Source of the DNA: Ignavibacteria bacterium
Lineage (GTDB): Bacteria > Bacteroidota > Ignavibacteria > Kapaibacteriales > UBA2268
DNA length: 33,399 nt
Assembly (NCBI GenBank): GCA_012522895.1
Contig: JAAYJM010000188.1
Location: 1-33,399 of the forward strand
Direction: 5' to 3'
The position numbers were made by a program, and so were the translations under genes. The notes under the pieces are model-generated. The model was given only the letters and a program-made list of their open reading frames with translations. It did not search any database and was not told the DNA's origin. Shown one piece after another: positions 1 through 32,796 of the stretch. Positions within the stretch are counted from its first letter, which is position 1. Every line of letters starts with the position of its first letter.

Positions 1-107
1 CCTTCCCAAATCCACTTTGGGAAGGATTTTTTTTTGAAAATTCATTGCTTGGATAATTGCTTAATTTTTATTAATTTAATAAAGATAGTGAAAAATCTTG
101 AAATAAA
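1..107 (+). repeat. Cassette-boundary repeat copy A: hairpin/T-run plus conserved AT-rich leader
   Basis: CCTTCCCAAATCCACTTTGGGAAGGATTTTTTTTTGAAAATTCATTGCTTGGATAATTGCTTAATTTTTATTAATTTAATAAAGAT, nearly identical to 1101-1205. Confidence 0.9.
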
Positions 108-560
108 ATGCGAAAACTAAGGATATATATTGATACTTCTGTTATCGGTGGCTGTTTCGACAAGGAATTTGCTGTGTGGTCAAATATGTTGTTTGATGAG
201 TTTATGGCTGGAAAAAAAATTGCTGTAATATCTGATGTAACAATTGGTGAACTATCAAAAGCTTATGATTTTATTAGAAACAAGATAAAAGAAATTCCTG
301 ATAAATATATTGAGGTAATACATAAGACTAAAGAAATAGAGGAATTATCCCATAGCTACATAAAGAATAATGCAACAAGTAAAAAGTATGGAGATGATGC
401 TTTACATATTGCATCTGCTACTATTGCCAAAGCCGATGTGTTAGTTAGCTGAAACTTTAAACATATAGTTAATCTTAGGCGTATTCAAATTTATAATTCA
501 GTAAATTTAATGAATGGATATTCAATAATTGAAATAAGAAATCCAAGAGAGGTGTTATAA
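108..560 (+). pseudogene. VapC-like PIN-domain toxin interrupted by in-frame TGA
   Basis: MRKLRIYIDTSVIGG PIN start; TGA at 450-452 where the paralogue at 1206 has TGG (SWNFKHIVN); same frame continues NFKHIVNLRRIQIYNSVNLMNGYSIIEIRNPREVL to TAA at 560. Confidence 0.85.
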
Positions 561-562
561 CT

Positions 563-730
563 ATGAAAAAAGAACTTGATTGCGTAGAAATGAAGTTAAA
601 AATACAAGAACAATTATGGAAAGAAGCAGGCGAAACCTTTGAAGGTTTAATTAAATTGCACGATAAATTATTAAAAGAAAGTGAGTTATATCATTTTCTT
701 ATGGAGAGAAAAGAAAAGAAAAGCAGTTAG
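563..730 (+). CDS. Small putative antitoxin downstream of PIN toxin
   Basis: MKKELDCVEMKLKIQEQLWKEAGETFEGLIKLHDKLLKESELYHFLMERKEKKSS; resembles ORF at 1660 (DCVEM..KI..QL..EA) in the same position. Confidence 0.6.
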   Translation: MKKELDCVEMKLKIQEQLWKEAGETFEGLIKLHDKLLKESELYHFLMERKEKKSS

Positions 731-908
731 AAACTGCATAATTTTAAAATAAGTATGTAAGTGCGGCATTGCTTTTTTATTTGTTATCAGTAATCAGTGC
801 CTTAAAAGATTTATCCATTGAAAACACTGAATAAGACACTGATTTACACTGAAATTTTTCAGTGTGTTCTGTGGAAAAATAAATCTGCTTTGAAAGTTCC
901 GATAAGGT

Positions 909-1016
909 ATGCTCGAAGAAGGTTTAGAGATTCCCAAACAAACAATATTTGGTATTGACTACTATCATATTTCTGATAAGTATAATATGGGATTGGAAAG
1001 AATCTCTATACCGTGA
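909..1016 (+). pseudogene. Truncated HicB C-terminal fragment
   Basis: Near-identical at nucleotide level to 28462-28569 (3' end of the intact hicB-like gene); similarity continues into downstream sequence to ~1056. Confidence 0.85.
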
Positions 1017-1100
1017 ATTGAAATCTATTCCATGTAATATTTGGGCGCTTATGTTGGGAAAGAAGAATAGAATAAGAGAATAAAATAATAAGAGAATCTC

Positions 1101-1205
1101 CTTCCCAAATCCACTTTGGGAAGGATTTTTTTTTGAAAATTCATTGCTTGGATAATTGCTTAATTTTTATTAATTTAATAAAGATATTGAAAATCTTGAA
1201 ATAAA
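1101..1205 (+). repeat. Cassette-boundary repeat copy B
   Basis: Same block as 1-107, directly upstream of a second PIN gene. Confidence 0.9.
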
Positions 1206-1670
1206 ATGCGAAAACTAAGGATATATATTGACACTTCTGTTATCGGTGGCTGTTTCGACAAGGAATTTGCTGAATGGTCGAATGTGCTGTTTGATGAGTT
1301 TATGGCTGGGAAAAAAATTGCTGTAATATCTGATCTAACCATATCTGAATTAGAATTAGCCCCTGATAAAGTAAAAAACAAAATTGACGAAATACCTGCA
1401 AGCAACTTAATAAAAATTGATATTAATCAAGAAATAATTTCGCTTGCCAATAAATATATTGAATATAAAGCTGTTAGCAAAAAGTTTATTGACGATGCAA
1501 CTCATATCGCTGCTGCTTCTTTGAATAATGTCAATATTTTAGTTAGCTGGAATTTCAAGCATATTGTAAATTATAATAGAATTAAACTTTACAATTCAAT
1601 TAATATGATGATGGGATACCCATTAATCGAAGTAAGAACACCGAGGGAGGTAATTGATTATGAACACTAA
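1206..1670 (+). CDS. PIN-domain ribonuclease toxin (VapC-like)
   Basis: YIDTSVIGG, conserved acidic positions, DDATHIAAA..NILVSWNFKHIVN. Confidence 0.85.
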   Translation: MRKLRIYIDTSVIGGCFDKEFAEWSNVLFDEFMAGKKIAVISDLTISELELAPDKVKNKIDEIPASNLIKIDINQEIISLANKYIEYKAVSKKFIDDATHIAAASLNNVNILVSWNFKHIVNYNRIKLYNSINMMMGYPLIEVRTPREVIDYEH

Positions 1671-1848
1671 AACTTTTGATTGTGTAGAAATGCAAAGAAA
1701 AATTAGATTTCAACTTGTAGAAGAAGCTGAAATGGACTTACAAAAATTTTTCCAGCTAATTAACAAAAAGAAATCTCAAAGTGAATTATACAGAAGGATA
1801 ACAGAAAAAATTGAAAAGCAAAAAAGCAAATCTGAAGTAGTAAGTTAA
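1660..1848 (+). CDS. Putative antitoxin partner of the PIN toxin
   Basis: Overlaps toxin 3' end; MNTKTFDCVEMQRKIRFQLVEEAEMDLQ resembles ORF 563-730; ATG at 1660 is a likelier start than the track start. Confidence 0.6.
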   Translation: MNTKTFDCVEMQRKIRFQLVEEAEMDLQKFFQLINKKKSQSELYRRITEKIEKQKSKSEVVS

Positions 1849-2022
1849 TGATATTGAAGATTTTGCATTGCTATTTGTTTAATAACTTAATAATTATAAA
1901 ACTCCTTCTTAACGATTTCGAAACAACGCGTCCAAAACAAGTTTCAGTCCGCTTCATCGCCCAGATGAATAGGGAGTATTTGAGTGCTTATGTAAGGAAA
2001 GAAGAATAGAATAAAAGAAGTT

Positions 2023-2110
2023 CCTTCCCAAATCTGCATTGGGAAGGATTTTTTTTGAAAATTCATTGCTTGGATAATCGCTTAATTTTGATTAATTTGA
2101 TAATGAAATA
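2023..2110 (+). repeat. Cassette-boundary repeat copy C
   Basis: CCTTCCCAAATCTGCATTGGGAAGGATTTTTTTTGAAAATTCATTGCTTGGATAATCGCTTAATTTTGATTAATTTGATAA. Confidence 0.9.
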
Positions 2111-2140
2111 GTTGTTGGAGGGAAAAAGCAAAATACTCTA

Positions 2141-2377
2141 ATGCCAACATTACTAAACAAAGGTCCGTATAGGTTTTACTTTTATAGTCATGAAAGCAAT
2201 GAACCTCCACATATTCATATTGACAGAGATTTATTTTCTGCAAAGTTCTGGCTTCAACCAGTTTCGCTTTGTAAAAATATTGGGTTTAGTCCCATAGAAT
2301 TGAATAAAATTTACAAAATAATTCTTGAACATCATAAATATTTCATAGAAAGATGGAATGAATACTTTAACACATAA
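2141..2377 (+). CDS. DUF4160 domain protein
   Basis: GPYRFYFYSHESNEPPHIHIDRD...AKFWL, typical DUF4160 pattern. Confidence 0.85.
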   Translation: MPTLLNKGPYRFYFYSHESNEPPHIHIDRDLFSAKFWLQPVSLCKNIGFSPIELNKIYKIILEHHKYFIERWNEYFNT

Positions 2378-2630
2378 TATAGATATGCGAATAAAAGCAG
2401 TCAATTTCAAAGACGAAATGATTGTTGTTAGTTTAATGGATGGCAGAATAATTTCTGTCCCACTTATTTTTTATCCAAGACTATTCAATGCAACAGCGCA
2501 ACAAAGAAATAACTGGGAAATTTGTGGGGGAGGTTACGGCATTCACTGGGCTGATATTGATGAAGATTTGAGTGCTAAAGGCTTGCTTCTTGGCCAGCCG
2601 GCTCCTGCAAAAGAGTTTGATTATGCATAA
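2358..2630 (+). CDS. DUF2442 domain protein (pairs with DUF4160)
   Basis: V.LMDGRIISVPLIFYPRLFNAT..QRNNWEICGGGYGIHWADIDEDLSAKGLL; overlaps the upstream ORF. Confidence 0.85.
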   Translation: MNTLTHNIDMRIKAVNFKDEMIVVSLMDGRIISVPLIFYPRLFNATAQQRNNWEICGGGYGIHWADIDEDLSAKGLLLGQPAPAKEFDYA

Positions 2631-2648
2631 TTTTTTTGCTGAATCTAA

Positions 2649-3061
2649 ATGGAGAAAAAGAAAGTCTATATTGAAACAAGCGTAATAAGTTATTTAACTG
2701 CAAAACCAAGCAGAGATTTAGTCGTTGCCGGTCATCAAAAAATAACTTATGAAAAATGGGAGATAAAAACGCTGCATTAAAACGATTAGAAGCAGTTAGA
2801 GATTTGCCTGATTTAGGATATAGCCCTAATGTTCAAAATTTAGCTATTAAATATATTGATTTATTTAGAATTCCAGAAAAAGCCAGGTTAGACGCTTTTC
2901 ATTTGGCATACGCAGTTTTATTCAAAATTGACTTTTTATTATCTTGGAATTGTAAGCATATTGCTAATGAATTAGTAAACTTAAAATTAAAGAATTACAA
3001 CATTAACAACTCTTTATATGTCCCATTTTTATGCACAGCACATGAATTATTGGAGGTTTAA
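2649..3061 (+). pseudogene. PIN-domain toxin with internal deletion and frameshift
   Basis: Frame 1 from ATG 2649: MEKKKVYIETSVISYLTAKPSRDLVVAGHQKITYEKWE..., stop at 2780; C-terminal part in another frame (ORF 2756-3061): GDKNAALKRLEAV...DAFHLAYAVLFKIDFLLSWNCKHIAN. Confidence 0.85.
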
Positions 3062-3062
3062 A

Positions 3063-3200
3063 ATACAGAAAGACCCAATCATTGCAGTAGTAAGAAAAAA
3101 CAGGGAAAAACTTTTAGCAAAATTTAATTTTGATTTAAAAAAGTTTTCTGAATATATAATTGAAGCACAAAAAAAGAAAAGAGAAAAGTTATTAATTTAG
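3063..3200 (+). CDS. Putative antitoxin remnant of the PIN module
   Basis: IQKDPIIAVVRKNREKLLAKFNFDLKKFSEYI; expected start position reads ATA; upstream in-frame ATG at 3018 lies inside the toxin. Confidence 0.45.
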   Translation: MQKDPIIAVVRKNREKLLAKFNFDLKKFSEYIIEAQKKKREKLLI

Positions 3201-3358
3201 AAGAAACAAGCAATTGAAATGCTTATTTACTTCTTTTGCGAAGCAGTTTGTCCAAAGCAAGTTTCAGTCCGCTTCATCGCCCAGATGAATAGGGAATATT
3301 TGAGTGCTTATATGAAAAATGAGGAGTAGAATAAGAGAAGAATAGAATAAAAGAATCT

Positions 3359-3445
3359 CCTTCCCAAATCTGCATTGGGAAGGATTTTTTTTGAAAATTC
3401 TTTGCTTGGATAATTGCTTTATTTTTATTAATTTAATATTGATAG
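3359..3445 (+). repeat. Cassette-boundary repeat copy D
   Basis: CCTTCCCAAATCTGCATTGGGAAGGATTTTTTTTGAAAATTCTTTGCTTGGATAATTGCTTTATTTTTATTAATTTAATA. Confidence 0.9.
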
Positions 3446-3468
3446 CAAAATGATAAGAAAGCGAAAAT

Positions 3469-5520
3469 ATGCCTTTAAATGTTAGAATCTGCGGAAATAG
3501 CCAAACTTCTGAATTAGACGATGCACGCGCTTTAAAAGAAATTATTGAAAGAGATATTCCAAATAATATTGAAGGAGAGATTTTAATAGTTCCTAATGCT
3601 ACCTTATTTGGTCAAGAAACAAAGGACGTTGACTTAATTCTTATTGGAAGACTGACTGATTATAGACTACCGTTAAACTCAGCGTCAAAGACAGCAATAC
3701 CCAATGAAAATGAAAATAGGCGAAGAGTTAGGAATATTTATTTCCAAAATTTTTGCTTTGTTATTGAAACTAAGCACCATAGATCTGAAGATGTATTTTT
3801 AAAAGGCATAAATCTATGCGTTAAATATAACAATAGATTAGCTGATGTTACTACTCAAAGTGAAAACCAAAAATACGCTTTAAAGAATTTTTTCTCTTCT
3901 AGAATTGAGAGCATCCCTTACATTTGTAATTTTATTTGGTTAAGAAATGTAAACACAGAGTCTTTACGACAGCTTATTGGCAATAATGATGAAATAATGT
4001 ATAATCATAATTATTTACCTTCAGATTTAAAAATTAAATGGCTATTCCAATTAGCTTGTGTCCAAAAGTTTCCATACACGCCTTACGATTCACAAAGACA
4101 ATGCTTTAAAAATTATTCAGTTTTTAAATCAACATTTGGCAATGAAGCAAACAATGATTTGGATAGTATAGAAGAATTATTCAACCAATTTGAAAGAATC
4201 AAGCAAGGGCAAGGAAATTTGACAAGAAGAAAAATAGAAATAATTACAAGACGTTTGTTAAGAGATCAACAGTATGCGCAAGCAATTGGTGAGAAGTTAC
4301 TAATAATTAGAGGTAGAGCTGGAACAGGCAAAACAATTAGGCTACTTAATATCGCTTGTGATTTAACTTCAAACAATGGCAAGCGATGCCTGATACTTAC
4401 ATATAACAACGCTCTAGTTAGTGATATAAGGAGAACATTTGCCTTAGCTGATATGCCAAATCAAATTGATGGTAAATCAATTAACATATCAACATTGCAC
4501 AAATATTTTAGAAAGCTACTTATAAGTTTTGGTATTGTTCAAAACAATAAACTTGATAATTATTTAGAAAATTACGATTACTATATTAAGGAACTTAATA
4601 AATACATCCAAGAAGGCTTAATTCAAGATAAGGACATTGAAGAATTAATGGTCAAAAGTTACGACGAGGTTGCTTGGGATTATGTTTTGATTGACGAGTC
4701 TCAAGATTGGAACTCAACAGAAAGAGATTTAATATTTAAGATATTTACTCACAGAAGAGTCATAGTTGCCGATGGTCAGGATCAGCTTGTAAGGAGACAA
4801 GAACACTGCGATTGGAAGCAAGGTTTAAACGAAAATGAATACCATCGAAGGCAACCAGAAAAACGAAGCTTAAGACAAAAATCAAATCTTGTAAGGGTTG
4901 TTAGGGCGGTTGCTGATGAAATAGGTGTTGACTGGGATGTTGTGCCACAAGATAAACTTGGTGGAGGTAAAGTAATAGTTACTTTTAACCCTTACAATGC
5001 AGATTTACACAATAGAGAGTATGCTAATTGCACAAAGAGTGATAACACCGCTTATGAAATGTTGTTTCTTGTGCCACCTTCGCTTGTTAGTAGAAATGGC
5101 AACGATCCAAGATCACGATCGTTTCGCAATATAAAAGAATTTAGTGATATGGGAATTAAAATATGGGATGGAACAAATACAGATATTCGAACTGAGTACT
5201 CAATTAACCTTGAGGAGCATAGATTAATACAATATGATTCTTGCAGAGGCTTAGAAGGTTGGTGTGTTATTTGCTTGGATTTTGACGATTTTATTAGATA
5301 TAAAACAGAAACGTTTAAAGAAGAAAACAATTCCAATCAATTAGCACTCGAAACATTTGAAGAGAGAAGGCAAAGATTTGTTAATATATGGTCTTTAATA
5401 CCTTTAACGAGAGCAATAGACACATTGATTATTACATTAAAAGATAGAAATTCGAATACTGCAGAACTTCTACGCCAAGTTTATCAGGATAATCCTGATT
5501 ATATTGAATGGATTGAATAG
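3469..5520 (+). CDS. NERD-type nuclease domain plus superfamily 1 (UvrD/Rep-like) helicase
   Basis: N-terminal DVDLILIG...FCFVIETKHHRSEDV (NERD-like), GRAGTGKT Walker A, YVLIDESQDW Walker B, C-terminal LTRAIDTLIITL. Confidence 0.8.
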   Translation: MPLNVRICGNSQTSELDDARALKEIIERDIPNNIEGEILIVPNATLFGQETKDVDLILIGRLTDYRLPLNSASKTAIPNENENRRRVRNIYFQNFCFVIETKHHRSEDVFLKGINLCVKYNNRLADVTTQSENQKYALKNFFSSRIESIPYICNFIWLRNVNTESLRQLIGNNDEIMYNHNYLPSDLKIKWLFQLACVQKFPYTPYDSQRQCFKNYSVFKSTFGNEANNDLDSIEELFNQFERIKQGQGNLTRRKIEIITRRLLRDQQYAQAIGEKLLIIRGRAGTGKTIRLLNIACDLTSNNGKRCLILTYNNALVSDIRRTFALADMPNQIDGKSINISTLHKYFRKLLISFGIVQNNKLDNYLENYDYYIKELNKYIQEGLIQDKDIEELMVKSYDEVAWDYVLIDESQDWNSTERDLIFKIFTHRRVIVADGQDQLVRRQEHCDWKQGLNENEYHRRQPEKRSLRQKSNLVRVVRAVADEIGVDWDVVPQDKLGGGKVIVTFNPYNADLHNREYANCTKSDNTAYEMLFLVPPSLVSRNGNDPRSRSFRNIKEFSDMGIKIWDGTNTDIRTEYSINLEEHRLIQYDSCRGLEGWCVICLDFDDFIRYKTETFKEENNSNQLALETFEERRQRFVNIWSLIPLTRAIDTLIITLKDRNSNTAELLRQVYQDNPDYIEWIE

Positions 5521-5581
5521 AGCTCTCAAGTAAAATTGCACTTACACGTACTAGCAAGGATAGTTAAATTTTTTTACAAAA

Positions 5582-5632
5582 ACTCATTAGTTGGATAATT
5601 GCTTTATTTTTATTAATTTGATAAAGATTTTA
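5582..5632 (+). repeat. Cassette-boundary repeat copy E (leader part only, hairpin lost)
   Basis: ACTCATTAGTTGGATAATTGCTTTATTTTTATTAATTTGATAAAGATTTT. Confidence 0.75.
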
Positions 5633-5645
5633 AGAATATGCTTAA

Positions 5646-5732
5646 ATGAAAAGAAAATTAAAAATATACTTGGATACTTCTGTAATAAATTTTCTTTTTG
5701 CTGATGACGCTCCAGAAAAAGGGTTGCTTTAA
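5646..5732 (+). pseudogene. N-terminal fragment of a PIN toxin
   Basis: MKRKLKIYLDTSVINFLFADDAPEKGLL*, typical PIN N-terminus that then stops. Confidence 0.75.
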
Positions 5733-5750
5733 ATCCAATGGAGGTTCTTT

Positions 5751-5927
5751 ATGAAAAAAGTTGATAAATCCTTAGAAGAAGTGTGGGAAATGAAAAATCA
5801 ATTATATGATGCTTTTGTTAAAAGTGGATACAATAATTATTCGCTATTCATTGAAAACACTGCGAAAGATACTAGAAAAAGATATAATATTAAATATAGA
5901 GATGAAGAGCAGTTAAAAACAGCATAG
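5751..5927 (+). CDS. Putative small antitoxin
   Basis: 58-aa ORF MKKVDKSLEEVWEMKNQLYDAF..., after GGAGG, in the position of the antitoxins at 563 and 1660. Confidence 0.5.
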   Translation: MKKVDKSLEEVWEMKNQLYDAFVKSGYNNYSLFIENTAKDTRKRYNIKYRDEEQLKTA

Positions 5928-5996
5928 ATTTTAGATTGTTACATCTCTGCTTTCAAATTAATGGAAACAATAGAAAAAAGGGTTTTCTAAGGCAAC

Positions 5997-6065
5997 GTTA
6001 ATGAATTAGGAATCAATGTTGCGACTCCTAAAGAATTTCTTCAATTAATTGGAGTTATAAAGTGA
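5997..6065 (+). pseudogene. C-terminal fragment of a PIN toxin
   Basis: VNELGINVATPKEFLQLIGVIK*; ends in GTGA overlapping the GTG start of the next ORF. Confidence 0.55.
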
Positions 6066-6298
6066 ACGTATTACAAATACCCATAAATGAAAATTTATAT
6101 TCTAAAATAAAAGAGTTCTCTGAAAAAGAAAATATAAGTATTGAATCTTTCGCCAGTTTAGCTATAGAAGAAAAAATTGAATACTATTCAGAAAGCGAAT
6201 ATTTTCTTAAACGCTTTAAAAATAAAACAAAAGATGATTTTCGTAGAGCATTACTAAAAGTCCCATCAGTTGAACCACCTGAATATGATAAATTATAA
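6062..6298 (+). CDS. Putative antitoxin
   Basis: 78-aa acidic ORF coupled by GTGA overlap to a PIN C-terminal relic. Confidence 0.5.
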   Translation: MNVLQIPINENLYSKIKEFSEKENISIESFASLAIEEKIEYYSESEYFLKRFKNKTKDDFRRALLKVPSVEPPEYDKL

Positions 6299-6328
6299 TT
6301 TTATCAAAAGATAATTAGGACAATTTCT

Positions 6329-6395
6329 CCTTCCCAAAACACAGTTTGGGAAGGATTTTTTTTGAAAACTCGTTTTTTGGATAATTACTTAATTC
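6329..6395 (+). repeat. Cassette-boundary repeat copy F (right end of array)
   Basis: CCTTCCCAAAACACAGTTTGGGAAGGATTTTTTTTGAAAACTCGTTTTTTGGATAATTACTTAATT, then sequence changes to the convergent gene's 3' end. Confidence 0.85.
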
Positions 6396-6397
6396 TC

Positions 6398-6808
6398 CTA
6401 CTGCTTTAAATAAATATCTCTGTAAATATAGTGCTGCACTCCATTATCATCAACTTCTACTTCTATCAGTCCTTTTGTTATAAAACTTTCTAAAACTTTT
6501 CTTGTCATTTCAATCGAGAGATTCATTTGCAACGTAGCTTCCGTTAAAGTAAACCGACCTTTGCTGTTCGAAGCAAGTAAAAGCACTCGCCTTTCCATCA
6601 TTGGGCTGTCTCTTATCTCCAATGGCGTTTTTTTTGACTTTTTCATAATACTGCGACCAATGAGTAGCGGGATAATTCCAGCAAAAATTAGCATACCGAA
6701 ACTGTTCCCAGGGTTGCTGCCACTAAACAGGCTAATCACTCCAGAAAAAGATGCAATGCTTCCCCAAACAAAAAGGATTTTCCCGACTATTCTTGTTGTT
6801 CTACTCAT
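6398..6808 (-). CDS. Membrane protein with C-terminal winged-helix-like region
   Basis: Two hydrophobic segments, then RRVLLLASNSKGRFTLTEATLQMNLSIEMTRKVLESFITKGLIEVE. Confidence 0.6.
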   Translation of the reverse strand: MSRTTRIVGKILFVWGSIASFSGVISLFSGSNPGNSFGMLIFAGIIPLLIGRSIMKKSKKTPLEIRDSPMMERRVLLLASNSKGRFTLTEATLQMNLSIEMTRKVLESFITKGLIEVEVDDNGVQHYIYRDIYLKQ

Positions 6809-10260: not shown

Positions 10261-12756
10261 ATGGAATATGGTAGTTTGGGAACTATTAAGTTGATAGAAT
10301 TTTATAAATTTAGGAAAATTTGGAAAATCTCGAAAAAAGCGGCGCTGGAAAAAGCGATGGAGCGTCTATTTCCCTTTTGCTGCCATAAAAAAGAGCGGGA
10401 AATCCCCCCTACCCCCCTTTTTCAAAGGGGGGAAAGAGAAAGGCATTCGGAACGAAGTGAAGAAAAAGAAATCCCACCTACCCCCCTTTTTCAAAGGGGG
10501 GATATAGAAAGACATTCGGAACAATTTTCCCGTCATCCTGAACGAAGTGAAGAAAAAGAAATCCCCCCTACCCCCCTTTTTCAAAAGGGGGATATTAACG
10601 AGCATTCGGAACAATTTTCCCGTCATCCTGAACGAAGTGAAGGATCCAGAAAATTTATTTTTGAGCAGAAAGAAAGAATATTATTTCTCGCAGAAAAACA
10701 TTTGAATAAAGAGTTTTCCTTGTTTGGGACTGAATGGAAAAAAGCAAAAGTAATAAATGAAAATAATCAAAAGAGAATAGATTGGAATTATGACCTTTTG
10801 ACGGGATTTCGATGGGATAGCTCGCAGCTTGGAAAAAAAATAAAACTTAATCAAGGAGAAGGAATTGACATAAAAAATATTTGGGAACTTGGACGAATGC
10901 AGCATCTTTTGATTTTTCCAATTGCCTCTGTTTTAGCACAGCAAGAGCAAAAGGATTCCAAAGTTCCAAACCAATATTTCGAGGAATTTAAAAGTCAAAT
11001 ATTAGATTTTATCCAATCTAATAAATACACTTATGGCGTCCATTGGTCTGTTGCGATGGAGGCGGGAATTCGGGCTACAAACTGGCTGATTGCTTTTTAT
11101 GTTTATAAAAACGCTGGTTTCATTGCCGATGAAATTTTTAATAAGGTATTTGAAAAAAGTTTGTTTGAGCATCTTTTATTTATCTGTGAAAATTTGGAGT
11201 GGAGCAATGGAATAAGAGGAAATCACTACCTTGCAAATATAGTTGCGATGCTCTTTCTTTCTGCATTTCTCCCAACAACAGAATTTACAAAAAAAACGCT
11301 CTATTTCGCAACTCAAGAGCTATGCAATGAAATTCTTGTGCAGTTCAACGAGGACGGCAGCAACTTTGAAGCTTCCCTCCCTTATCATTATTTTTCTACT
11401 GAAATAGTTCTTGCTGGGCTTTGGCTTATTTTTTCCTTAAAAGAAAATAAAATAAAGGATATGCTAAAAGTTGAGCCTTGTAGGTTTATCAAAAAAAAGA
11501 AAATTCAGCCATTTAAAAAACAACTTTTTTCTATAAATAAAAACAATTTTTCAATAGATTTAAATGCAGCTCTTTATGAAAGAATATCAAAAATCTTGGA
11601 TTTTTCCCATAACTTGCTAAAAAGCAATGGCAAAGCAGAGCAAATTGGAGACAACGATAGCGGCTTTTTCATAAGTGCAGAAATTGAGCCTTTTTTAAAG
11701 GAGTTTTGGGAGCATTTATTACTCAAGATCAGTCCTCCAGAAATTAAGCAATTTTATTTTTACAAAGATTTTGGCATTTTTATCAAAAGGACTAATCAAT
11801 ATTTTGCTACAATTCGCTGTGGCTCTATTGGACAAAGAGGCAAAGGAGGGCATAGCCACAACGACCAGCTATCTCTTACTTTGAATCTTTTTGGTGTTGA
11901 TTTTCTTGTCGACCCCGGAACTTATTCATACACAGGGCAGCCAAAGCTGCGAAATTTGTTCCGCTCTACTGCTTATCATAATACCCTTTCAATCGAGGGA
12001 ATGGAGCAAAACGAGTGGGCAGAAAACAATCTCGATGATCTTTTTTGGTTTAAAACTGATAGAACAAAATCGAAAATGATTGAATATTCTGAAAAACATT
12101 TCATTGCTGAGCATTATGGATTTGGAAAGCCGCATCGCCGCGAAATCTTTTTTCACGATGACTTCATAGAAGGTATAGATTTTTGCAAAATAAAAGGGAA
12201 AAAAAGAGTATGTTTCCATCTCTCGCCTGATATACTTATTGCGCCTATTAAGGAAGATGATGAGAGCAGCTCTGGATTCTTCACTGCGTTCAGAATGACC
12301 CCCCCTTTGAAAAAGGGGGATAAAGGGGATTTTCAGCCCCCTGGATTCTTCACTGCATTCAGAATGACCCCCCCTTTGAAAAAGGGGGATAAAGGGGATT
12401 TTCAGCCCCCTGGATTCTTCACTGCATTCAGAATGACCCCCCCTTTGAAAAAGGGGGGCAGGGGGGATTTCTCGCCTTCTTTGAAAAAGGGGGATAAAGG
12501 GGATTTTCAGACTTCTGGATTCTTCACTGCATTCAGAATGACCCCCCCTTTGAAAAAGGGGGGCAGGGGGGATTTCTCCGCTTTAAGCGATTTCGAGGCA
12601 GTGCTTACATTTACAAACGGCATCGGCTTTATCGAAGAATATAATTTTTCATCGGGTTACAATCAAATGCAGAAATCGAAAAGAATTATATTAGAATTTG
12701 AAGAGGAAAAGTTAAATTGGAGATTGCAGTTTTGCAAAATTGAAAAAAAGATTTGA
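10261..12756 (+). CDS. Heparinase II/III-like protein containing in-frame repeat insertions
   Basis: GGHSHNDQLSLTLNLFGVDFLVDPGTYSYTG...STAYHNTLSIEGMEQ typical of heparinase II/III C-terminal domain. Confidence 0.85.
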   Translation: MEYGSLGTIKLIEFYKFRKIWKISKKAALEKAMERLFPFCCHKKEREIPPTPLFQRGERERHSERSEEKEIPPTPLFQRGDIERHSEQFSRHPERSEEKEIPPTPLFQKGDINEHSEQFSRHPERSEGSRKFIFEQKERILFLAEKHLNKEFSLFGTEWKKAKVINENNQKRIDWNYDLLTGFRWDSSQLGKKIKLNQGEGIDIKNIWELGRMQHLLIFPIASVLAQQEQKDSKVPNQYFEEFKSQILDFIQSNKYTYGVHWSVAMEAGIRATNWLIAFYVYKNAGFIADEIFNKVFEKSLFEHLLFICENLEWSNGIRGNHYLANIVAMLFLSAFLPTTEFTKKTLYFATQELCNEILVQFNEDGSNFEASLPYHYFSTEIVLAGLWLIFSLKENKIKDMLKVEPCRFIKKKKIQPFKKQLFSINKNNFSIDLNAALYERISKILDFSHNLLKSNGKAEQIGDNDSGFFISAEIEPFLKEFWEHLLLKISPPEIKQFYFYKDFGIFIKRTNQYFATIRCGSIGQRGKGGHSHNDQLSLTLNLFGVDFLVDPGTYSYTGQPKLRNLFRSTAYHNTLSIEGMEQNEWAENNLDDLFWFKTDRTKSKMIEYSEKHFIAEHYGFGKPHRREIFFHDDFIEGIDFCKIKGKKRVCFHLSPDILIAPIKEDDESSSGFFTAFRMTPPLKKGDKGDFQPPGFFTAFRMTPPLKKGDKGDFQPPGFFTAFRMTPPLKKGGRGDFSPSLKKGDKGDFQTSGFFTAFRMTPPLKKGGRGDFSALSDFEAVLTFTNGIGFIEEYNFSSGYNQMQKSKRIILEFEEEKLNWRLQFCKIEKKI
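10399..10645. repeat. Palindromic repeat array in the heparinase N-terminal coding region
   Basis: GAAATCCCCCCTACCCCCC... units starting at 10399, 10468, 10558 (spacings 69 and 90 nt). Confidence 0.9.
12272..12580. repeat. Palindromic repeat array in the heparinase C-terminal coding region, inverted relative to 10399-10645
   Basis: CTGGATTCTTCACTGC(G/A)TTCAGAATGACCCCCCCTTTGAAAAAGGGGG units at 12272, 12341, 12410, 12515 (spacings 69, 69, 105 nt). Confidence 0.9.
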
Positions 12757-14686: not shown

Positions 14687-14851
14687 TAACGTTTAATTTT
14701 TTACGGCTATAGTCTGGGCTGTATCTGTTTGAACCGTGGTTTGCTTGATTAAGGGATTTCTTGATTTTCCAGGTGGAGTCCAGAAATCCCCCCAGCTCCC
14801 TTTTTCAAAGGGGGAGGAAGAATGTCCCACACTGGCGGGGGTAGTTGCTTC

Positions 14852-14890
14852 AGATGTGCCACACTTCGAAAGTGTGGCACATCTTTTTTC
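14852..14890 (+). terminator. Strong hairpin with T-run, 15-3-15 architecture
   Basis: AGATGTGCCACACTT-CGA-AAGTGTGGCACATCT followed by TTTTTC. Confidence 0.7.
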
Positions 14891-15468: not shown

Positions 15469-15501
15469 AGATGGGCGCCAGCTCGAAGGTGGAGTCCATC
15501 T
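15469..15501. repeat. Degenerate AGATG...CATCT hairpin family member
   Basis: AGATGGGCGCCAGCT-CGA-AGGTGGAGTCCATCT. Confidence 0.65.
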
Positions 15502-19407: not shown

Positions 19408-20487
19408 ATGCTATTTGCAGACAATACATATTTCTATTATAAATTCCCAGAGCCACAGTATCTTGGTGCGAAATACATCTGGTTGCCGTGGATAAATAGG
19501 TTTATCCCTAAAAATATTCGAACTGCTTTTGATGGTTTTGCTGGCTCACAATCAGTTGCTTATTTATTCAAGCAAAATGGTTTTAAAACAATAACAAATG
19601 ATTTTCTTAATTTTAATCATCAAATTGGTCTATCTTTAATAGAAAACAATAATTTTACTCTATCTAAAGAAGAATTAGAATTTATTTTTTCAAATGAAAA
19701 TATTAATAAAAATAACAGTTCATTATTTAAAAACGTATTTTCTAATGTCTTTTTTGATGAAGAACAAGCAATTTTTTTAGATAAAGTAAGAGCTAATATT
19801 GATTTGCTTGATAATCAATATAAAAAAGCACTTGCTTTTACTTTAGTAAACAGGAGCTTAACAAGAAAAGTAACAATGGGACATTTCGCACATAACCAAG
19901 CAATAAATTACGCAAACAACCCAGAAAGGATTAAACGAAATCCTAATTTGGCAAGGCATGTAAAAGATATAATCTCAGATATATTTGTTTTATATAACAA
20001 TGCGATTTTTAATAATGAACAAGATAATAAGAGTTATAATGAGAATGTTTTAGAACTTCTCCCAAAATTAGACAATATAGATTTGGCTTACTACGATCCG
20101 CCATATTGCGATAGTCATGCTGATTATCAGAGCTTTTATCACTTATTAGAAACTTTTGTAGAATATTGGTCTGACAAAGAATTTATTAATACCACAAGAA
20201 GATACGAGCCTAAAAGATATAGCGGCTTTGATAAAAAACAATTAATAATTGATTCCTTAAATCAGCTATTCGCGCTATCAAAAGACATTCCGAACTGGCT
20301 AATTAGCTGGAATAATAGGAGCTATCCAAAAGTTAAAGAATTAGAAAAAATTTTAAAGCAGTATAAAGATGTTAGTATTGAAACACAGACTTATTTAAAT
20401 GGACGAGGTGGAAAAGGAAGCGTAGCAGGAAGCAGAGAGGTTCTGTTTGTTTGCAAAAACAAATTATCAATAAATATTGGTTTGTGA
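19408..20487 (+). CDS. D12-class N6-adenine DNA methyltransferase
   Basis: PQYLGAKYIWLPWI, FDGFAGSQSVAYLFK, DLAYYDPPYCDSHADY. Confidence 0.88.
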   Translation: MLFADNTYFYYKFPEPQYLGAKYIWLPWINRFIPKNIRTAFDGFAGSQSVAYLFKQNGFKTITNDFLNFNHQIGLSLIENNNFTLSKEELEFIFSNENINKNNSSLFKNVFSNVFFDEEQAIFLDKVRANIDLLDNQYKKALAFTLVNRSLTRKVTMGHFAHNQAINYANNPERIKRNPNLARHVKDIISDIFVLYNNAIFNNEQDNKSYNENVLELLPKLDNIDLAYYDPPYCDSHADYQSFYHLLETFVEYWSDKEFINTTRRYEPKRYSGFDKKQLIIDSLNQLFALSKDIPNWLISWNNRSYPKVKELEKILKQYKDVSIETQTYLNGRGGKGSVAGSREVLFVCKNKLSINIGL

Positions 20488-20488
20488 A

Positions 20489-21607
20489 ATGACAAAAGAA
20501 ATAAAGGATTTCGATTATTGGAAAAACGCATATAATTCTGATAAGTTAGATGAATTTAATTTTAATTCATCTGCTTTGCTATGGCTGAAAATTAAGTCTA
20601 TAACCAGAAAAGAACTTTTAAGTGATTTCATTCAATCAAATTCATTGATTATAAAAAGCAAATTATTAAATGACAGATTTAAAGAGATTTATTCTGTTTT
20701 TATTAAAGATTTAGAAAAATCGCATTTAATTTTAGATAAATTTATTAATGATAAAAATCAAGAAAATTTACATAATGTTGACAAAGAGGCAATAGTATCT
20801 GAGTTGTTTAAACTTCGTTCCTTTGAATGGGGCGGGGATTATAAAAACGCTCTTGATAAATATTTAGTAGATAAGTATGTAAAAGCATTTCAAAAATATG
20901 ACGAATTGATTTCCAAATTTGAAACTGAAATAAATAGAGCTGTTATTGGATATATATTGTGTAGCTGGTATAATCATTGGTCAAGTATTCTTATTGAATA
21001 TATTTTTAAAACTCATCCTTTTGTTCTCCCAACCGTTGGAAAAATTAAGAAAGTAGATTTTTTTATCAATAATATTCCTTTCGATTTAAAAGTTACTTAC
21101 TTACCTTCAAATTTTATTGAAAAAAGAAGAAAATCAAAAGGTTTAAAACCGGAATTGACTGAGTTAAAACAAAAAGCCAAACAGGCAAATATTACTTACT
21201 CGAACCACAAGCGGCAAGATGATATTTATTATGAAATAGTTGAAAAAATGAAGAATAAAAATGATGATTTTTGTAAAAATTCCCTAAAAGAATTAAAAGA
21301 CACCCGTATTTCTATTTTAAATGAAACATTAGCTAATCCCAAATTATTAGTTCAGAACCTTTACGAAGAACAAGGTGAAATGAGATTCGATTCATCAAAC
21401 AGATTATTTCTTGTTCTTATTGACTCAGATGATTTTGATAATTCTTGGAAATTAAAAAGAAATCTAAATTTATTAACTCCATCAATTATGAAATACCTTG
21501 ATGAATTCCCTGAAAAAAATATTGATGATTTGAAAGTTAGTTTTAAATACAAAAATAAAAGTAATGTATTTAATGCTTTAGCTGATATTATTTTTGTTGT
21601 AAAGTAG
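20489..21607 (+). CDS. Putative type II restriction endonuclease
   Basis: Lies between two MTases; FFINNIPFDLKVTYLPSNF resembles a PD-(D/E)xK core; ATG at 20489. Confidence 0.6.
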   Translation: MTKEIKDFDYWKNAYNSDKLDEFNFNSSALLWLKIKSITRKELLSDFIQSNSLIIKSKLLNDRFKEIYSVFIKDLEKSHLILDKFINDKNQENLHNVDKEAIVSELFKLRSFEWGGDYKNALDKYLVDKYVKAFQKYDELISKFETEINRAVIGYILCSWYNHWSSILIEYIFKTHPFVLPTVGKIKKVDFFINNIPFDLKVTYLPSNFIEKRRKSKGLKPELTELKQKAKQANITYSNHKRQDDIYYEIVEKMKNKNDDFCKNSLKELKDTRISILNETLANPKLLVQNLYEEQGEMRFDSSNRLFLVLIDSDDFDNSWKLKRNLNLLTPSIMKYLDEFPEKNIDDLKVSFKYKNKSNVFNALADIIFVVK

Positions 21608-21612
21608 CTTAT

Positions 21613-22860
21613 ATGTCAAATTTTATTAAATACATAGAAAACTTTAATTTACAAGATAATTCCTTGTTTTTTGATAATGATAAATATTCTACACGTATTG
21701 AGAATTTTAAATATAATGGTTTTTCTATTCCAAAATATATAAATGAGTTTTGGACTTCAAAGCAAAGACAGGCAAATTCACTTCACGAAGTTTCTTACCG
21801 TGCCTGCTTTAAACCACAATTACCCCGTTTTTTCATTGAAGGATTAACAGAAGAAAAAGACACTGTCTACGATCCTTTTTCTGGAAGAGGAACCTCGGCT
21901 TTAGAAGCATCACTGCTAAACAGGAAAGCTATTGCAAATGACATCAACCCATTGAGTTTAATTCTTTTAAAGCCGCGGCTTAATCCCCCAACAATTTCTG
22001 AAATCAATAAAAGATTAAATGAAATAATTTTTTCTTATAATTTAACAAGTGATATTGATCTTTCAATGTTTTATGATGAAAATACTTTGTCTGAATTAGT
22101 TTCTTTAAAAAATTATTTAATAGAAAAAAAAGATAATAACACTGAAGATGAAGTGGATGATTGGATTAGGATGGTAGCTACTAACCGCTTAACAGGTCAT
22201 TCCAAAGGCTTTTTCTCTGTTTTTACCCTCCCACCTAATCAAGCAGTTTCGCAAAAAAGCCAAATTAGAATTAATGAAAAAAGACAGCAAACTCCGGATT
22301 ATAGAAATATAAAAAAGCTTATTCTTGGTAAATCAAAGCAATTACTAAGTGGAATTAATACAAATACAAGAAAAATGCTGTCAGAAAATTATAATTCCTC
22401 TTTGCTATTAAATTTAGATGCGAGGGATACTCCACAAATAAAAGACAACTCAATTTCACTCACAGTAACTTCGCCCCCTTTCTTAGATCTTGTTCAATAT
22501 GCTAATGATAATTGGTTGCGACTTTGGTTTAACAATTTAAATGCTGATGAGATTGCAAGAAATATTGTTATGGCGAAAACAGAAGAGCAATGGCACAATT
22601 TTATTTTTGATGTTTTTAAAGAACTTTTTCGCATAACGAAACCTAATGCTTATATTGCTTTTGAAGTTGGAGATCTGAAAAACGGAAAGGTAAAATTAGA
22701 TGAAATTGTTGTTAGTATTGGAATTGAAGTTGGGTTAAAATGTCTCGGAATTATCATTAATGAACAAGTTTTTACAAAAACATCAAACATTTGGGGCGTA
22801 AAAAATAATCACAAAGGCACAAATACAAATAGAATTGTTATATTTCAAAAAGGAAGCTAA
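21613..22860 (+). CDS. DNA methyltransferase (N4-cytosine/N6-adenine type)
   Basis: VYDPFSGRGTSALEASLLNRKAIANDINPLS and LTVTSPPFLDLVQY. Confidence 0.88.
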   Translation: MSNFIKYIENFNLQDNSLFFDNDKYSTRIENFKYNGFSIPKYINEFWTSKQRQANSLHEVSYRACFKPQLPRFFIEGLTEEKDTVYDPFSGRGTSALEASLLNRKAIANDINPLSLILLKPRLNPPTISEINKRLNEIIFSYNLTSDIDLSMFYDENTLSELVSLKNYLIEKKDNNTEDEVDDWIRMVATNRLTGHSKGFFSVFTLPPNQAVSQKSQIRINEKRQQTPDYRNIKKLILGKSKQLLSGINTNTRKMLSENYNSSLLLNLDARDTPQIKDNSISLTVTSPPFLDLVQYANDNWLRLWFNNLNADEIARNIVMAKTEEQWHNFIFDVFKELFRITKPNAYIAFEVGDLKNGKVKLDEIVVSIGIEVGLKCLGIIINEQVFTKTSNIWGVKNNHKGTNTNRIVIFQKGS

Positions 22861-22861
22861 A

Positions 22862-23098
22862 ATGAAAAAAAGTGCTTTAGAAGAAAAATTGAATAATTAT
22901 GAGAATATTGTAAGGTCCATTATTGAAACTTTCAATAATATTGATTTTCATATTACCGTAGAAACAACTATTCATAAAAATATTCACAAATTCGATCCAA
23001 AGAACAAACTTGATAATGATTTGCTTAATGACTTAAAATTAATTATCAATGATTTTGCTAAAACATATTCAAACGAAGGAATTACATTATATTTGTAG
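22862..23098 (+). CDS. Small hypothetical protein in the RM island
   Basis: ORF abutting the upstream MTase stop; ATG at 22862. Confidence 0.5.
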   Translation: MKKSALEEKLNNYENIVRSIIETFNNIDFHITVETTIHKNIHKFDPKNKLDNDLLNDLKLIINDFAKTYSNEGITLYL

Positions 23099-23130
23099 CA
23101 AAGCTTATGAAATTAGGAAATTTTGAAATA
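23081..23130 (+). repeat. Left copy of ~50 bp direct repeat around the second RM system
   Basis: ATTACATTATATTTGTAGCAAAGCTTATGAAATTAGGAAATTTTGAAATA; 47/50 by hand against 24779-24828. Confidence 0.9.
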
Positions 23131-23901
23131 AATAATATCTATAACATAGATTGTCTTGTTGGTATGAAAGAGCTACCGAATGATTGTATTGATTTGGTGG
23201 TTACTTCACCTCCTTATGACGATTTGCGTAACTATAACGGCTACCATTTTGATTTTGACAACATTGCAAAGGAATTATTTAGAGTAATCAAAAAAGGTGG
23301 AGTTGTTGTATGGGTGGTTGGCGATAAAATTAAAAACGGTGACCGCACTTTGACAAGCTTTAAACAATGTCTTTATTTTCAAGAAGTTGGGTTTAATGTG
23401 CATGATGTAATGATTTATCAAAAGAAAAACACACCGTTTATGCGTTCAAATGCTTACACAAATTGCTATGAATTTATGTTTGTTTTTTCAAAAGAAAAGG
23501 TTAATACTTTTAATCCATTAAAAACTAAAACAGCCCGGCACGGTTTCGAAAAGTTAGTTACAAACAAAAAAGCAGATGGAGTTAATAAAAAAGTCATTGC
23601 AGAATTGAAAAAAGAAAAAACTATGACTAATATTTGGAATTATGCCGTTGGTCTGGGCGGCTCCACAAACGATAAAATAGCATTCCAGCATACTGCAATT
23701 TTCCCAGAAAAATTAGCACAGGACCATATATTATCCTGGTCTAATGAAGGCGATTTGGTTTTTGACCCGATGAGCGGTTCTGGAACAACCTGTAAAATGG
23801 CTAAACTGAATAATCGAAATTATCTCGGAATGGAAATATCGAAAGAGTATGTTGATTTATCTATTAAAAGATTAGAATTGCTGCAACATCAGCTTCTTTG
23901 A
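23107..23901 (+). CDS. Beta-class DNA methyltransferase
   Basis: VVTSPPYDDLRNY first, then FDPMSGSGTTCKMAKLNNRNYLGMEIS. Confidence 0.9.
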   Translation: MKLGNFEINNIYNIDCLVGMKELPNDCIDLVVTSPPYDDLRNYNGYHFDFDNIAKELFRVIKKGGVVVWVVGDKIKNGDRTLTSFKQCLYFQEVGFNVHDVMIYQKKNTPFMRSNAYTNCYEFMFVFSKEKVNTFNPLKTKTARHGFEKLVTNKKADGVNKKVIAELKKEKTMTNIWNYAVGLGGSTNDKIAFQHTAIFPEKLAQDHILSWSNEGDLVFDPMSGSGTTCKMAKLNNRNYLGMEISKEYVDLSIKRLELLQHQLL

Positions 23902-28060: not shown

Positions 28061-28093
28061 AGATGGACTCCACCTTCGAGGTGGAGTCCATCT
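28061..28093. repeat. Perfect AGATG...CATCT hairpin, 15-bp arms
   Basis: AGATGGACTCCACCT-TCG-AGGTGGAGTCCATCT. Confidence 0.85.
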
Positions 28094-28107
28094 CTACGCT
28101 GTTTCTC

Positions 28108-28140
28108 CTTCCCAAATTCAAATGGGGAGGATTTTTTTTG
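28108..28140 (+). repeat. TTCCCAAA/TTTGGGAA-type hairpin and T-run upstream of the Hic locus
   Basis: CCTTCCCAAATTCAAATGGGGAGGATTTTTTTTGAA. Confidence 0.7.
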
Positions 28141-28277: not shown

Positions 28278-28322
28278 TTACAAAAAAGTATTTTAAAACA
28301 AGCTGGTTTAGAAAATGAATAA
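28278..28322 (+). pseudogene. Probable HicA toxin C-terminal relic
   Basis: LQKSILKQAGLENE* ending in ATGAATAA overlap with hicB start; matches typical HicA tail (LKSILKQAGL). Confidence 0.55.
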
Positions 28323-28569
28323 ATATCTTATAATATACGAAAAAACCGAAAGCGGATATTCGGCTTACGCTCCAGATTTGCCTGGATGCGTTGCAGCAGC
28401 TTCTACTAAAAAAGAAACAGAAATTTTAATGAGAGAAGCTATTGAATTTCACATTGAAGGAATGCTCGAAGAAGGTTTAGAAATTCCCAAACAAACAATA
28501 TTTGGTATTGACTACTATCAAATTTCTGATAAGCATAATATGGAATTGGAAAGAATCTCTATACCGTGA
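28315..28569 (+). CDS. hicB: HicB-family antitoxin
   Basis: YLIIYEKTESGYSAYAPDLPGCVAAASTKKETEILMREAIEFHIEGMLEEG. Confidence 0.9.
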   Translation: MNKYLIIYEKTESGYSAYAPDLPGCVAAASTKKETEILMREAIEFHIEGMLEEGLEIPKQTIFGIDYYQISDKHNMELERISIP

Positions 28570-28764
28570 ATTGAAATCTATTCCGGGGAATATTTGGGCG
28601 CTTATGTGAAAAATGAGGAGTAGAAAAACGACCCTTACGGGAAAAAATTTCTCGTTGGGGGGTTTCATAGTAATCTTTTTTAACTTACTTTGGAAGTAAG
28701 AGAAAAAATCATTTGCTTCTTTCAAAAAGTTAGCATATTTTAATAAAAATTTATTGTATCATTT

Positions 28765-31218
28765 ATGAAAGCATTTGTTATGAATGACATTAACAATGAT
28801 TTTATTACATTCAAAGATTTGATAGCTGATTGGATGACTGAAAAATTTCAACATCTTGAAAACTATTGGAATAATAAAGTAATGATTTCCTTAACTGAGT
28901 TTGAGCGGCAAAACCTTAGGCACTTCAATAGAACTCATTTGAAGCAATTGGATGTAAGGATAAACCTCAAAGTTTTTATAAGAAATTGGGATTTCTTTAA
29001 GGATGACTATCCAAATGATTTGCTAACTTATTTTATATTAATCTTACAAATTGCAAATAAGTTTGCTCATCCTTCTGAAGTCCCATGCAATGATGATAAG
29101 TTTCATGCTTATGATACTATGATGAGAATTTGTGATTATTTAAATCTGGACGAAGAGTTTAAAAATCAATGTGAGGCCCAAAGAACTGTTTTTTTTCAAG
29201 GAATTGAAAGTAACGTTGAATTTAATTATGAAATAAAAGATGCATCTCTATTATCGATTTCTAACATTTTTGAGAAAAGAATTATATTAAGAATACCAGA
29301 TTTTCAGCGCGGTTTCTCTTGGGAAAAGAAGCATTTAGATCAATTCTGGCAAGATTTAATGCAGTTAGATAGAGGTGGAATTCATTATACTGGCGTATTA
29401 ACATTAGATAGAGTTATAATTAATGAGAACAACCAAAACCACTGGCAAGACGCATATTCGCTTTTAAATGAATCACCAGAATTTACGCCCTACTATATTA
29501 TTGATGGACAGCAAAGAATTACAACTATATTAATTTTACTATATTGTTTGAGTAATAGATTAAATGAAGAACAAAGAAATGAAATAATCAATAAATATTT
29601 TATTATTAATCGAGGAGGCAATAATTACTATTTATTTAAATACGAAACAAATAACTTTGCTAATGACTATTTTGTTAATAGATTGAGCGGTGAAGGAAAT
29701 CAAATCAATATTAATGACTTATACACTAGGAGGCTAATAGAGGCTGAACATTTTTTTAATAATAAAATCAATGAAAAATTTATATCTGATGATGATGAAA
29801 ACATTGTTGATATTAATGGAATAAGCGGGCTAATTGAAAGAGTTACTAATAAATTTAAATTTAAAATTTACGAAGTTTCTAATGAATTAGAATCCAGCAT
29901 TATATTTGAAACAATGAATAATAGAGGAAAGTCTTTATCTAAATTAGAATTATTAAAAAACAGATTGCTTTATTTAACTTCTATTATTCAAATAAATAAT
30001 ACAGATAGAATTGAATTGAGAAATGAAATAAATAGAACTTGGTCAATTGTTTATGAGTATCTTGGCAAAGACGAGGAAAATGTTATAAATGAAGATGATT
30101 TTTTACTAAAACACTATTTTATGTTTTATCAGTATTACGGTATCCAGGTTGATCTGATTATAAACAGTTTATTTCAAGAAATTAGCGAAGAAGAGATTGA
30201 AGCTAAATTCCCATTGAACATACAAAATGACAATGAGGTTTACAGTAATATTTTAGAATACACTTTAAGTTTGCAAGAAAGTATTAAAGTATGGTTTAAA
30301 ATTAAACTACCATATCATCAAGAAAATAACTTAAATGAAAGCATTTTATTCTGGTTAGAAAAGATCAACAGGTTGCCATATAGGGCATTCGATCCTTGTA
30401 TTATGGCTATATTATTGAGATACCCAAATGAAATCGAACAAATAGTTGAATTGTTAAAAAAAATTGAGATTTTTATTGTAAAGTCATTTTATATAGCTAA
30501 TAGAAATAGTAATTTTAGGAAGAATCATTATTTAGGCAGAGCGAACAGATTATTTAGAGATGACATTGAAGATCAAATTAGCATTCAAGGCTTAATTGAG
30601 GATATCGACGAATCGTTAAACGAAGGTGCTAATAACAATTATTACTTTGAAGCATTTCGGGAAAAAGTTACAGCTTTTCGAAATGAGAAAGGATTTTTGG
30701 ATTGGAACGGATTTAAATACATATTATATGAATACGAATTGAATTTAATGGAAGAGGACCAAGATAACCCTTTATTAGTAGAATGGTCAAGAGCTAAACG
30801 TGATATACAATATGAGCTTATTTACCCCGAAGAGCCAAGAGATGGTGCTTGGAATCAAATTGAGAATGATTTAAATATTCAGACAATTAATAAAAATAGA
30901 TTACGATTTAGCCTTGGAAACATTCTTTTAAAAAGATCACCTGGCCACAAGGCATACCGTAGAAATAGTTTCGAGAACAAAAAAACTCATCAAAATTTTG
31001 GCTATGAGGATGGCTCATATTCAGAAATGGAAGTTTTCGAAAAAGAAAATTGGACTCATAAAGAAATTTTATCAAGAGGAGTTAAAATTTACGATTTTAT
31101 AAAAGAAAGATGGGAGCTTAGTTTCGCTGATGACCTTGCATCAAAGAAAAAAATATTAAGACTAGCTAACGTTCCTCCTATTGCTGATATTAACGATGAA
31201 AACTTTGAAGAGTTTTAA
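28765..31218 (+). CDS. DUF262 / GmrSD-like protein with divergent DUF1524-type C-terminus
   Basis: RIPDFQRGFSWEKKHLDQFW, YYIIDGQQRITT, FETMNNRGKSLSKLELLKNRL; C-terminal LGNILL...NSFENKK..GYEDGSYSEMEV..W. Confidence 0.88.
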   Translation: MKAFVMNDINNDFITFKDLIADWMTEKFQHLENYWNNKVMISLTEFERQNLRHFNRTHLKQLDVRINLKVFIRNWDFFKDDYPNDLLTYFILILQIANKFAHPSEVPCNDDKFHAYDTMMRICDYLNLDEEFKNQCEAQRTVFFQGIESNVEFNYEIKDASLLSISNIFEKRIILRIPDFQRGFSWEKKHLDQFWQDLMQLDRGGIHYTGVLTLDRVIINENNQNHWQDAYSLLNESPEFTPYYIIDGQQRITTILILLYCLSNRLNEEQRNEIINKYFIINRGGNNYYLFKYETNNFANDYFVNRLSGEGNQININDLYTRRLIEAEHFFNNKINEKFISDDDENIVDINGISGLIERVTNKFKFKIYEVSNELESSIIFETMNNRGKSLSKLELLKNRLLYLTSIIQINNTDRIELRNEINRTWSIVYEYLGKDEENVINEDDFLLKHYFMFYQYYGIQVDLIINSLFQEISEEEIEAKFPLNIQNDNEVYSNILEYTLSLQESIKVWFKIKLPYHQENNLNESILFWLEKINRLPYRAFDPCIMAILLRYPNEIEQIVELLKKIEIFIVKSFYIANRNSNFRKNHYLGRANRLFRDDIEDQISIQGLIEDIDESLNEGANNNYYFEAFREKVTAFRNEKGFLDWNGFKYILYEYELNLMEEDQDNPLLVEWSRAKRDIQYELIYPEEPRDGAWNQIENDLNIQTINKNRLRFSLGNILLKRSPGHKAYRRNSFENKKTHQNFGYEDGSYSEMEVFEKENWTHKEILSRGVKIYDFIKERWELSFADDLASKKKILRLANVPPIADINDENFEEF

Positions 31219-32629: not shown

Positions 32630-32691
32630 AAAAATACTTAATTTTTTTTTAGAAAAAACCATAACTGATCGTTAAAAAACATAATTCCCTC

Positions 32692-32724
32692 CTTCCCAAA
32701 CCCACTTTGGGAAGGATTTTTTTA
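32692..32724 (+). repeat. Cassette-type hairpin/T-run upstream of TA pair
   Basis: CCTTCCCAAACCCACTTTGGGAAGGATTTTTTT. Confidence 0.85.
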
Positions 32725-32796
32725 TAAAAATACATTTGTTAAGTTGAAAGATTCTATTTAACTTTGCAAATCATTGATTAGAATAAGGAGTTTAAA

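What the first reader, a model, noticed from the sequence alone, without database searches (positions are those of the whole stretch)
1..6395. Repeat-bounded, co-oriented array of TA/defence gene cassettes without recognisable integron parts
Six junctions (1, 1101, 2023, 3359, 5582, 6329) carry the same block: a hairpin (TTCCCAAA-n-TTTGGGAA) with a T-run, then a conserved AT-rich leader (TTGGATAATTGCTTAATTTTTATTAATTT). Between junctions lie unrelated accessory units, all on the + strand: PIN/antitoxin, PIN/antitoxin, DUF4160-DUF2442 plus PIN/antitoxin, NERD-helicase, decayed PIN modules. Lengths are roughly 0.8-2.2 kb. The hairpin looks like a terminator and the leader like a promoter, so each cassette could be transcriptionally self-contained. 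The pattern resembles an integron cassette array, but no attC-type core (RYYYAAC/GTTRRRY) and no integrase is visible. Copy F abuts the 3' end of the convergent gene at 6398, giving a sharp right end. The hairpin alone recurs at 28108 and 32692 before other TA genes. I infer the block is either the substrate for cassette gain and loss by recombination or a mobile boundary element.
Basis: partly seen in the sequence, partly recalled or inferred. Interest (0 to 1): 0.75.

Follow-up and report, generated by a model that had tools for sequence, protein, structure and literature searches.

The report
Shuffled, decaying toxin–antitoxin gene array
A run of toxin–antitoxin and defence genes in a bacterial genome is separated by copies of one terminator-plus-promoter block, three of them still carrying the tail end of a metabolic gene (sdhB), which points to duplication and ordinary homologous recombination rather than a new kind of integron.

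Summary
The repeated block is real. Four copies are full (1, 1100, 2023, 3359), one has the leader without a hairpin (about 5568), one has the hairpin and a truncated leader (6329). One more full copy lies on contig C19, downstream of sdhCAB; 60 relatives show only weak matches.

Another tail follows the HicB gene at 28586. The hairpin belongs to a genome-wide palindrome family of about 80 sites; hairpin plus leader is array-specific. The leader resembles a Bacteroidota promoter.

The integron reading fails: no attC core pairs, one Xer-like tyrosine recombinase, no serine recombinase, no Y1 transposase. Block edges vary. Units A and B are mosaic: 3.4% divergent up to position 237, inside the PIN gene, then 29%. 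Four of five PIN genes are broken.

Best explanation: an accessory-gene hotspot that began at the sdhB 3' end, grew by tandem duplication and homologous recombination using the sdhB-tail/terminator/promoter block as homology, and is decaying. Gain and loss between strains could not be tested.

The parts
1..102 (+). Block copy A: hairpin, T-run, leader; the contig begins here, so anything to the left is unknown
108..557 (+). Unit A PIN gene, broken by an in-frame TGA
   Evidence: weak PIN matches when TGA is read through; translation
563..730 (+). Unit A antitoxin-like ORF (55 aa), open
   Evidence: sequence; start, stop and frame
904..1075 (+). 3' fragment of a HicB gene plus sdhB tail, 91% identical to 28457-28628
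1038..1070 (+). sdhB 3' tail, YLGAYVGKEE*
1100..1200 (+). Block copy B
1206..1670 (+). Unit B PIN gene, the only intact one
1660..1848 (+). Unit B antitoxin-like ORF
1909..2014 (+). sdhB 3' tail, 81% identical to native sdhB
2023..2109 (+). Block copy C
2141..2377 (+). DUF4160 gene (weakly like the DhiT toxin family)
2358..2630 (+). DUF2442 gene
2652..3061 (+). Unit C PIN gene, split between frames
3237..3334 (+). sdhB 3' tail, 96% identical to native sdhB
3359..3444 (+). Block copy D
3469..5520 (+). UvrD/SLFN-type helicase, 683 aa
5568..5637 (+). Block copy E: leader without hairpin
5646..5729 (+). Unit E PIN remnant, about 375 nt deleted relative to C19
5751..5927 (+). Unit E antitoxin-like ORF, open
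6329..6394 (+). Block copy F: hairpin with leader cut at 6394, next to the 3' end of the convergent gene 6398-6808
28107..28139 (+). Hairpin with T-run, no leader, upstream of the HicB gene
28586..28659 (+). sdhB 3' tail with sdhB's own downstream sequence, after the HicB gene 28315-28569
32691..32736 (+). Hairpin with T-run, no leader, upstream of a RelE/ParE-type pair

Best explanation
The array is an accessory-gene (toxin–antitoxin and defence) hotspot that originated at the 3' end of the sdhCAB operon and grew by tandem duplication, ectopic homologous recombination or gene conversion, and gene loss. The shared block (sdhB tail, intrinsic-terminator-like hairpin, promoter-like leader) is the inherited edge of the duplicated or imported segments and serves as homology for further exchange. 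Because each block ends one unit with a terminator and opens the next with a promoter, exchanges at the block leave the units transcribable. Shown: the block copies, the sdhB tails, the A/B mosaic breakpoint, the decay of most PIN genes, the absence of dedicated recombinases. Inferred: RecA-type exchange, copying from sdhB outward, terminator and promoter activity.
For: sdhB 3' tails precede the hairpin at B, C and D and one follows HicB at 28586; native sdhB is on C19, followed by HEPN and PIN genes and a full block. The tails keep the sdhB frame and stop codon. A and B are 3.4% divergent up to position 237 and 29% after, break inside the PIN gene; max-chi2 49.2 against at most 13.1 in 1000 permutations. 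C and D share tail, hairpin and leader between unrelated flanks. Unit E and C19 share 94-99% identical PIN–antitoxin sequence with one internal deletion. One tyrosine recombinase, no serine recombinase, no Y1 transposase in a 97%-complete genome. A related PIN–antitoxin relic on C81 has no block, so the block is not an inherent part of the PIN module.
Against: No second strain is held, so exchange is not observed directly. Linkage of C19 to the array is not shown; in relatives sdhB and the gene at 6895 are not neighbours. The C and D tails start within about 10 nt of each other, which a fixed crossover site would also give, although common ancestry explains it. The promoter motif is only modestly enriched upstream of genes.
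Confidence: 0.65

Rival explanations
1. The units are small mobile elements inserted site-specifically at the 3' end of sdhB by a recombinase acting in trans (an unseen integrase or the host Xer); each insertion restores the sdhB end and leaves a tail copy, so the tails are att sites.
For: In-frame sdhB tails at cassette 3' ends, C diverged (81%) but frame-keeping; unrelated cassette contents; one Xer-like protein present.
Against: Tail lengths differ (33 to about 106 nt) and the right edges of the block differ (2109, 3445, 6394). No integrase in any unit. Dif-like matches in the window are at the chance level and none lies in a block. No cluster of this kind follows sdhB in the relatives examined.
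Confidence: 0.15
2. Plain descent: duplicated PIN–antitoxin modules each kept their terminator and promoter; the shared block reflects only gene-family ancestry and selection on expression signals, with no recombination role.
For: A, B, E and C19 are homologous PIN modules starting directly behind the leader; hairpin and leader have expression-signal features.
Against: C and D have the block without a homologous gene directly behind it; sdhB tails are not part of a PIN module; sharp A/B breakpoint; PIN–antitoxin relic on C81 without a block.
Confidence: 0.13
3. Assembly artefact: strain variants of one locus downstream of sdhB were joined into one contig through the repeated block.
For: The contig starts exactly at a block; the end of C19 is 98.8% identical to window 5729-5896, its last 84 nt exactly; 275 contigs.
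Against: Unit contents differ; long unique stretches lie between most blocks; 29% divergence between the A and B units is beyond strain noise.
Confidence: 0.07

Closest known systems
[quoted passage not shown]
   Same: Accessory genes next to a core gene, no integrase needed, housekeeping recombination invoked
   Different: Here the core gene's 3' tail is itself multiplied between units, joined to a terminator/promoter block
Integron cassette arrays (reviewed in PMC8618304; found in a search, not read in full)
   Same: Co-oriented small accessory units, many toxin–antitoxin, separated by a palindrome-bearing repeat (resemblance only)
   Different: No attC core pairs, no second tyrosine recombinase, a promoter-like leader for each unit, variable edges
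Acinetobacter dif (pdif) modules rearranged at Xer sites (PMC13141974)
   Same: Small modules, often toxin–antitoxin
   Different: No dif-like site at the junctions above chance; not shown to be on a plasmid; all units co-oriented
REP-like interspersed palindromes
   Same: The hairpin belongs to a genome-wide palindrome family of about 80 sites, some in pairs 31 bp apart
   Different: No Y1 transposase in the genome; array copies carry a T-run and leader

Membership tests
Integron cassette array | attC sites with RYYYAAC and GTTRRRY cores at cassette boundaries | tested here: not met
   No core pair in any junction; only two single GTTRRRY matches in E
Integron cassette array | integron integrase | tested here: not met
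   PF00589 finds one protein in the genome, which reads as Xer; 97% complete, so a missing integrase is unlikely but possible
Xer dif modules | dif-like sites bounding the modules | tested here: inconclusive
   9 loose matches in the window against 10.2 expected, none in a block, but the host's own dif was not identified
Xer dif modules | excision or inversion between sites | not testable with these tools
   needs reads or an experiment
REP/RAYT system | Y1 (REP-associated) transposase in the genome | tested here: not met
   PF01797 not found
Homologous-recombination hotspot at a core gene | accessory genes adjoining a core gene, no dedicated recombinase | tested here: met
   C19: sdhCAB followed by HEPN and PIN genes. 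Linkage of C19 to the window array itself is not shown
Homologous-recombination hotspot at a core gene | traces of exchange in shared sequence | tested here: met
   A/B breakpoint at 237; block shared between unrelated flanks at C and D
Homologous-recombination hotspot at a core gene | gene content varies between strains | not testable with these tools
   no genome of the same genus among the relatives searched

The most novel reading that the evidence does not exclude
A recombinase acting in trans exchanges small toxin–antitoxin and defence cassettes at an sdhB-end/terminator site, giving an array of self-promoted cassettes distinct from integrons and dif modules.
Probability: 0.08. Interest if true: 0.75.

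Novelty: new variant of a known kind. Interest (0 to 1): 0.42.

Why it matters
If right, it shows how a core gene's 3' end with a terminator and a promoter can be multiplied into ready-made joints that let an accessory locus grow and shuffle without any integrase while its units stay transcriptionally separate. It also warns against calling every repeat-bounded toxin–antitoxin array an integron.

Tried and rejected
Block search in 60 relatives: only weak matches. Leader pattern in the genome and viral collections: none. Relatives of the helicase in genome contigs: none confirmed. Rfam: nothing at gathering threshold. tRNA genes as an insertion target: none in the window. attC core pairs and dif-like sites at the junctions: none. 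Y1 transposase and serine recombinase: none. sdhB next to the gene at 6895 in relatives: no. Similar clusters downstream of sdhB in relatives: none seen. Comparison of tail C with relatives' sdhB codons: the script's register for tail C, and for the loci lying on the other strand, was wrong (0-2 of 63 matches), so it is not used.

Full report
What is there. The window is contig C124 of a genome of 275 contigs and 2.66 Mb, 97% complete. The block of hairpin, T-run and AT-rich leader is repeated at 1, 1100, 2023 and 3359; the leader without hairpin recurs at 5568, and the hairpin with a cut leader at 6329. All of these exceed the best match in 50 shuffles of the window (58-93 of 94 against 52). 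The one other full copy in the genome is on contig C19, 626-721, minus strand. Sixty relatives show only weak matches.

The hairpin is not special to the array. Its palindrome, with up to three mismatches, is at 82 places in the genome against 0 for the reversed control. Contexts that I read look intergenic, and some copies come in pairs 31 bp apart. The versions CCTTCCAAAA..TTTTGGAAGG and CCTTCCCAAG..CTTGGGAAGG differ by paired changes on both arms, so the stem is kept. With an exact stem and a T-run it occurs at nine sites, seven of them in this window or on C19. The stems fold at -14.4 to -16.8 kcal/mol; junction E has none.

The leader looks like a Bacteroidota-type promoter, TTG-N19-TTAATTTG (consensus from my own knowledge). 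C, E and C19 match 8 of 9 scored positions, A, B and D 7 of 9. The motif is modestly enriched upstream of long ORFs: 21 of 76 regions score 8 or more, against a shuffled mean of 11.75 and maximum of 16. A similar sequence stands upstream of a gene on C221 that reads like a 3-phosphoglycerate dehydrogenase. Promoter and terminator roles are inferred, not shown.

C19 carries sdhC, sdhA and sdhB, then a small ORF, a HEPN gene, another small ORF, the block, and a PIN gene. The last part of sdhB recurs in the window at 3237-3334 (96%), 1909-2014 (81%) and 28586-28659 (89%, with sdhB's own downstream sequence), and as 33 nt at 1038-1070. The copies keep frame and stop: C reads PKQVSVRFIAQMNREYLSAYVRKEE*, D PKQVSVRFIAQMNREYLSAYMKNEE*, native PKQVSVRFIAQMNREYMGAYMKNEE*. 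Three junctions are therefore sdhB tail + hairpin + leader. The stretch 904-1075, a HicB end plus sdhB tail, is 91% identical to 28457-28628.

Traces of exchange. A and B are 3.4% divergent up to position 237, inside the PIN gene, and 29% after; the max-chi2 of 49.2 compares with a maximum of 13.1 in 1000 permutations. C and D share tail, hairpin and leader between unrelated flanks. Unit E is the C19 PIN–antitoxin unit with about 375 nt missing and 94-99% identity elsewhere. A PIN–antitoxin relic on C81 without a block shows that the block is not an inherent part of the PIN module.

Decay. The PIN gene of A has an in-frame TGA, that of C is split between frames, that of E has an internal deletion and that of C19 is split between frames; only B is intact. 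The antitoxin-like ORFs of A, B and E are open. Loss of toxins with antitoxins left behind is what relaxed selection on the toxins would give (inference).

Mechanism. No attC core pair lies at a junction. Dif-like matches in the window are at the chance level and none is in a block, although the host dif was not identified. PF00589 finds one tyrosine recombinase, which reads as Xer; PF00239 and PF01797 find nothing. The edges of the block vary on both sides. I therefore prefer duplication and homologous recombination to site-specific exchange. The published precedent is hotspots without mobile elements and with recombination at flanking core genes (PMC5635113). Site-specific insertion at the sdhB end by a recombinase in trans is the main rival; dif modules (PMC13141974) are its closest model.

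Limits. The contig begins at a block, so what lies left of unit A is unknown. C19 ends in sequence 98.8% identical to window 5729-5896, the last 84 nt exactly, so C19 may be the left flank, a strain variant or a second locus. In relatives sdhB is not next to the gene at 6895, and no such cluster was seen after sdhB.

Noticed in passing
10398-10590, 12236-12583: Repeats with CCCCCTTTTTCAAAGGGGG palindromes lie inside the reading frame of the 831-aa ORF 10261-12756, apparently kept in frame; related copies lie at 14782-14814.
   Followed up: no
14852-14884, 15469-15501, 28061-28093: Further palindromic families (AGATGTGCCACACTT..AAGTGTGGCACATCT and AGATGGACTCCACC..GGTGGAGTCCATCT), often beside the CCTTCCC palindrome elsewhere in the genome; no Y1 transposase found.
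   Followed up: partly
19408-23901: Cluster of what read like DNA methyltransferase and restriction-type genes; not searched against families.
   Followed up: no
28765-31218: 817-aa protein with a GmrSD N-terminal (DUF262-type) domain and a weak Swt1-like HEPN match, similar to PADLOC HEC-06 and Orf5 models.
   Followed up: partly
L165 1390-1760 (contig C81): PIN–antitoxin relic related to units A and B, with an internal deletion and no block, between palindromic repeats.
   Followed up: partly
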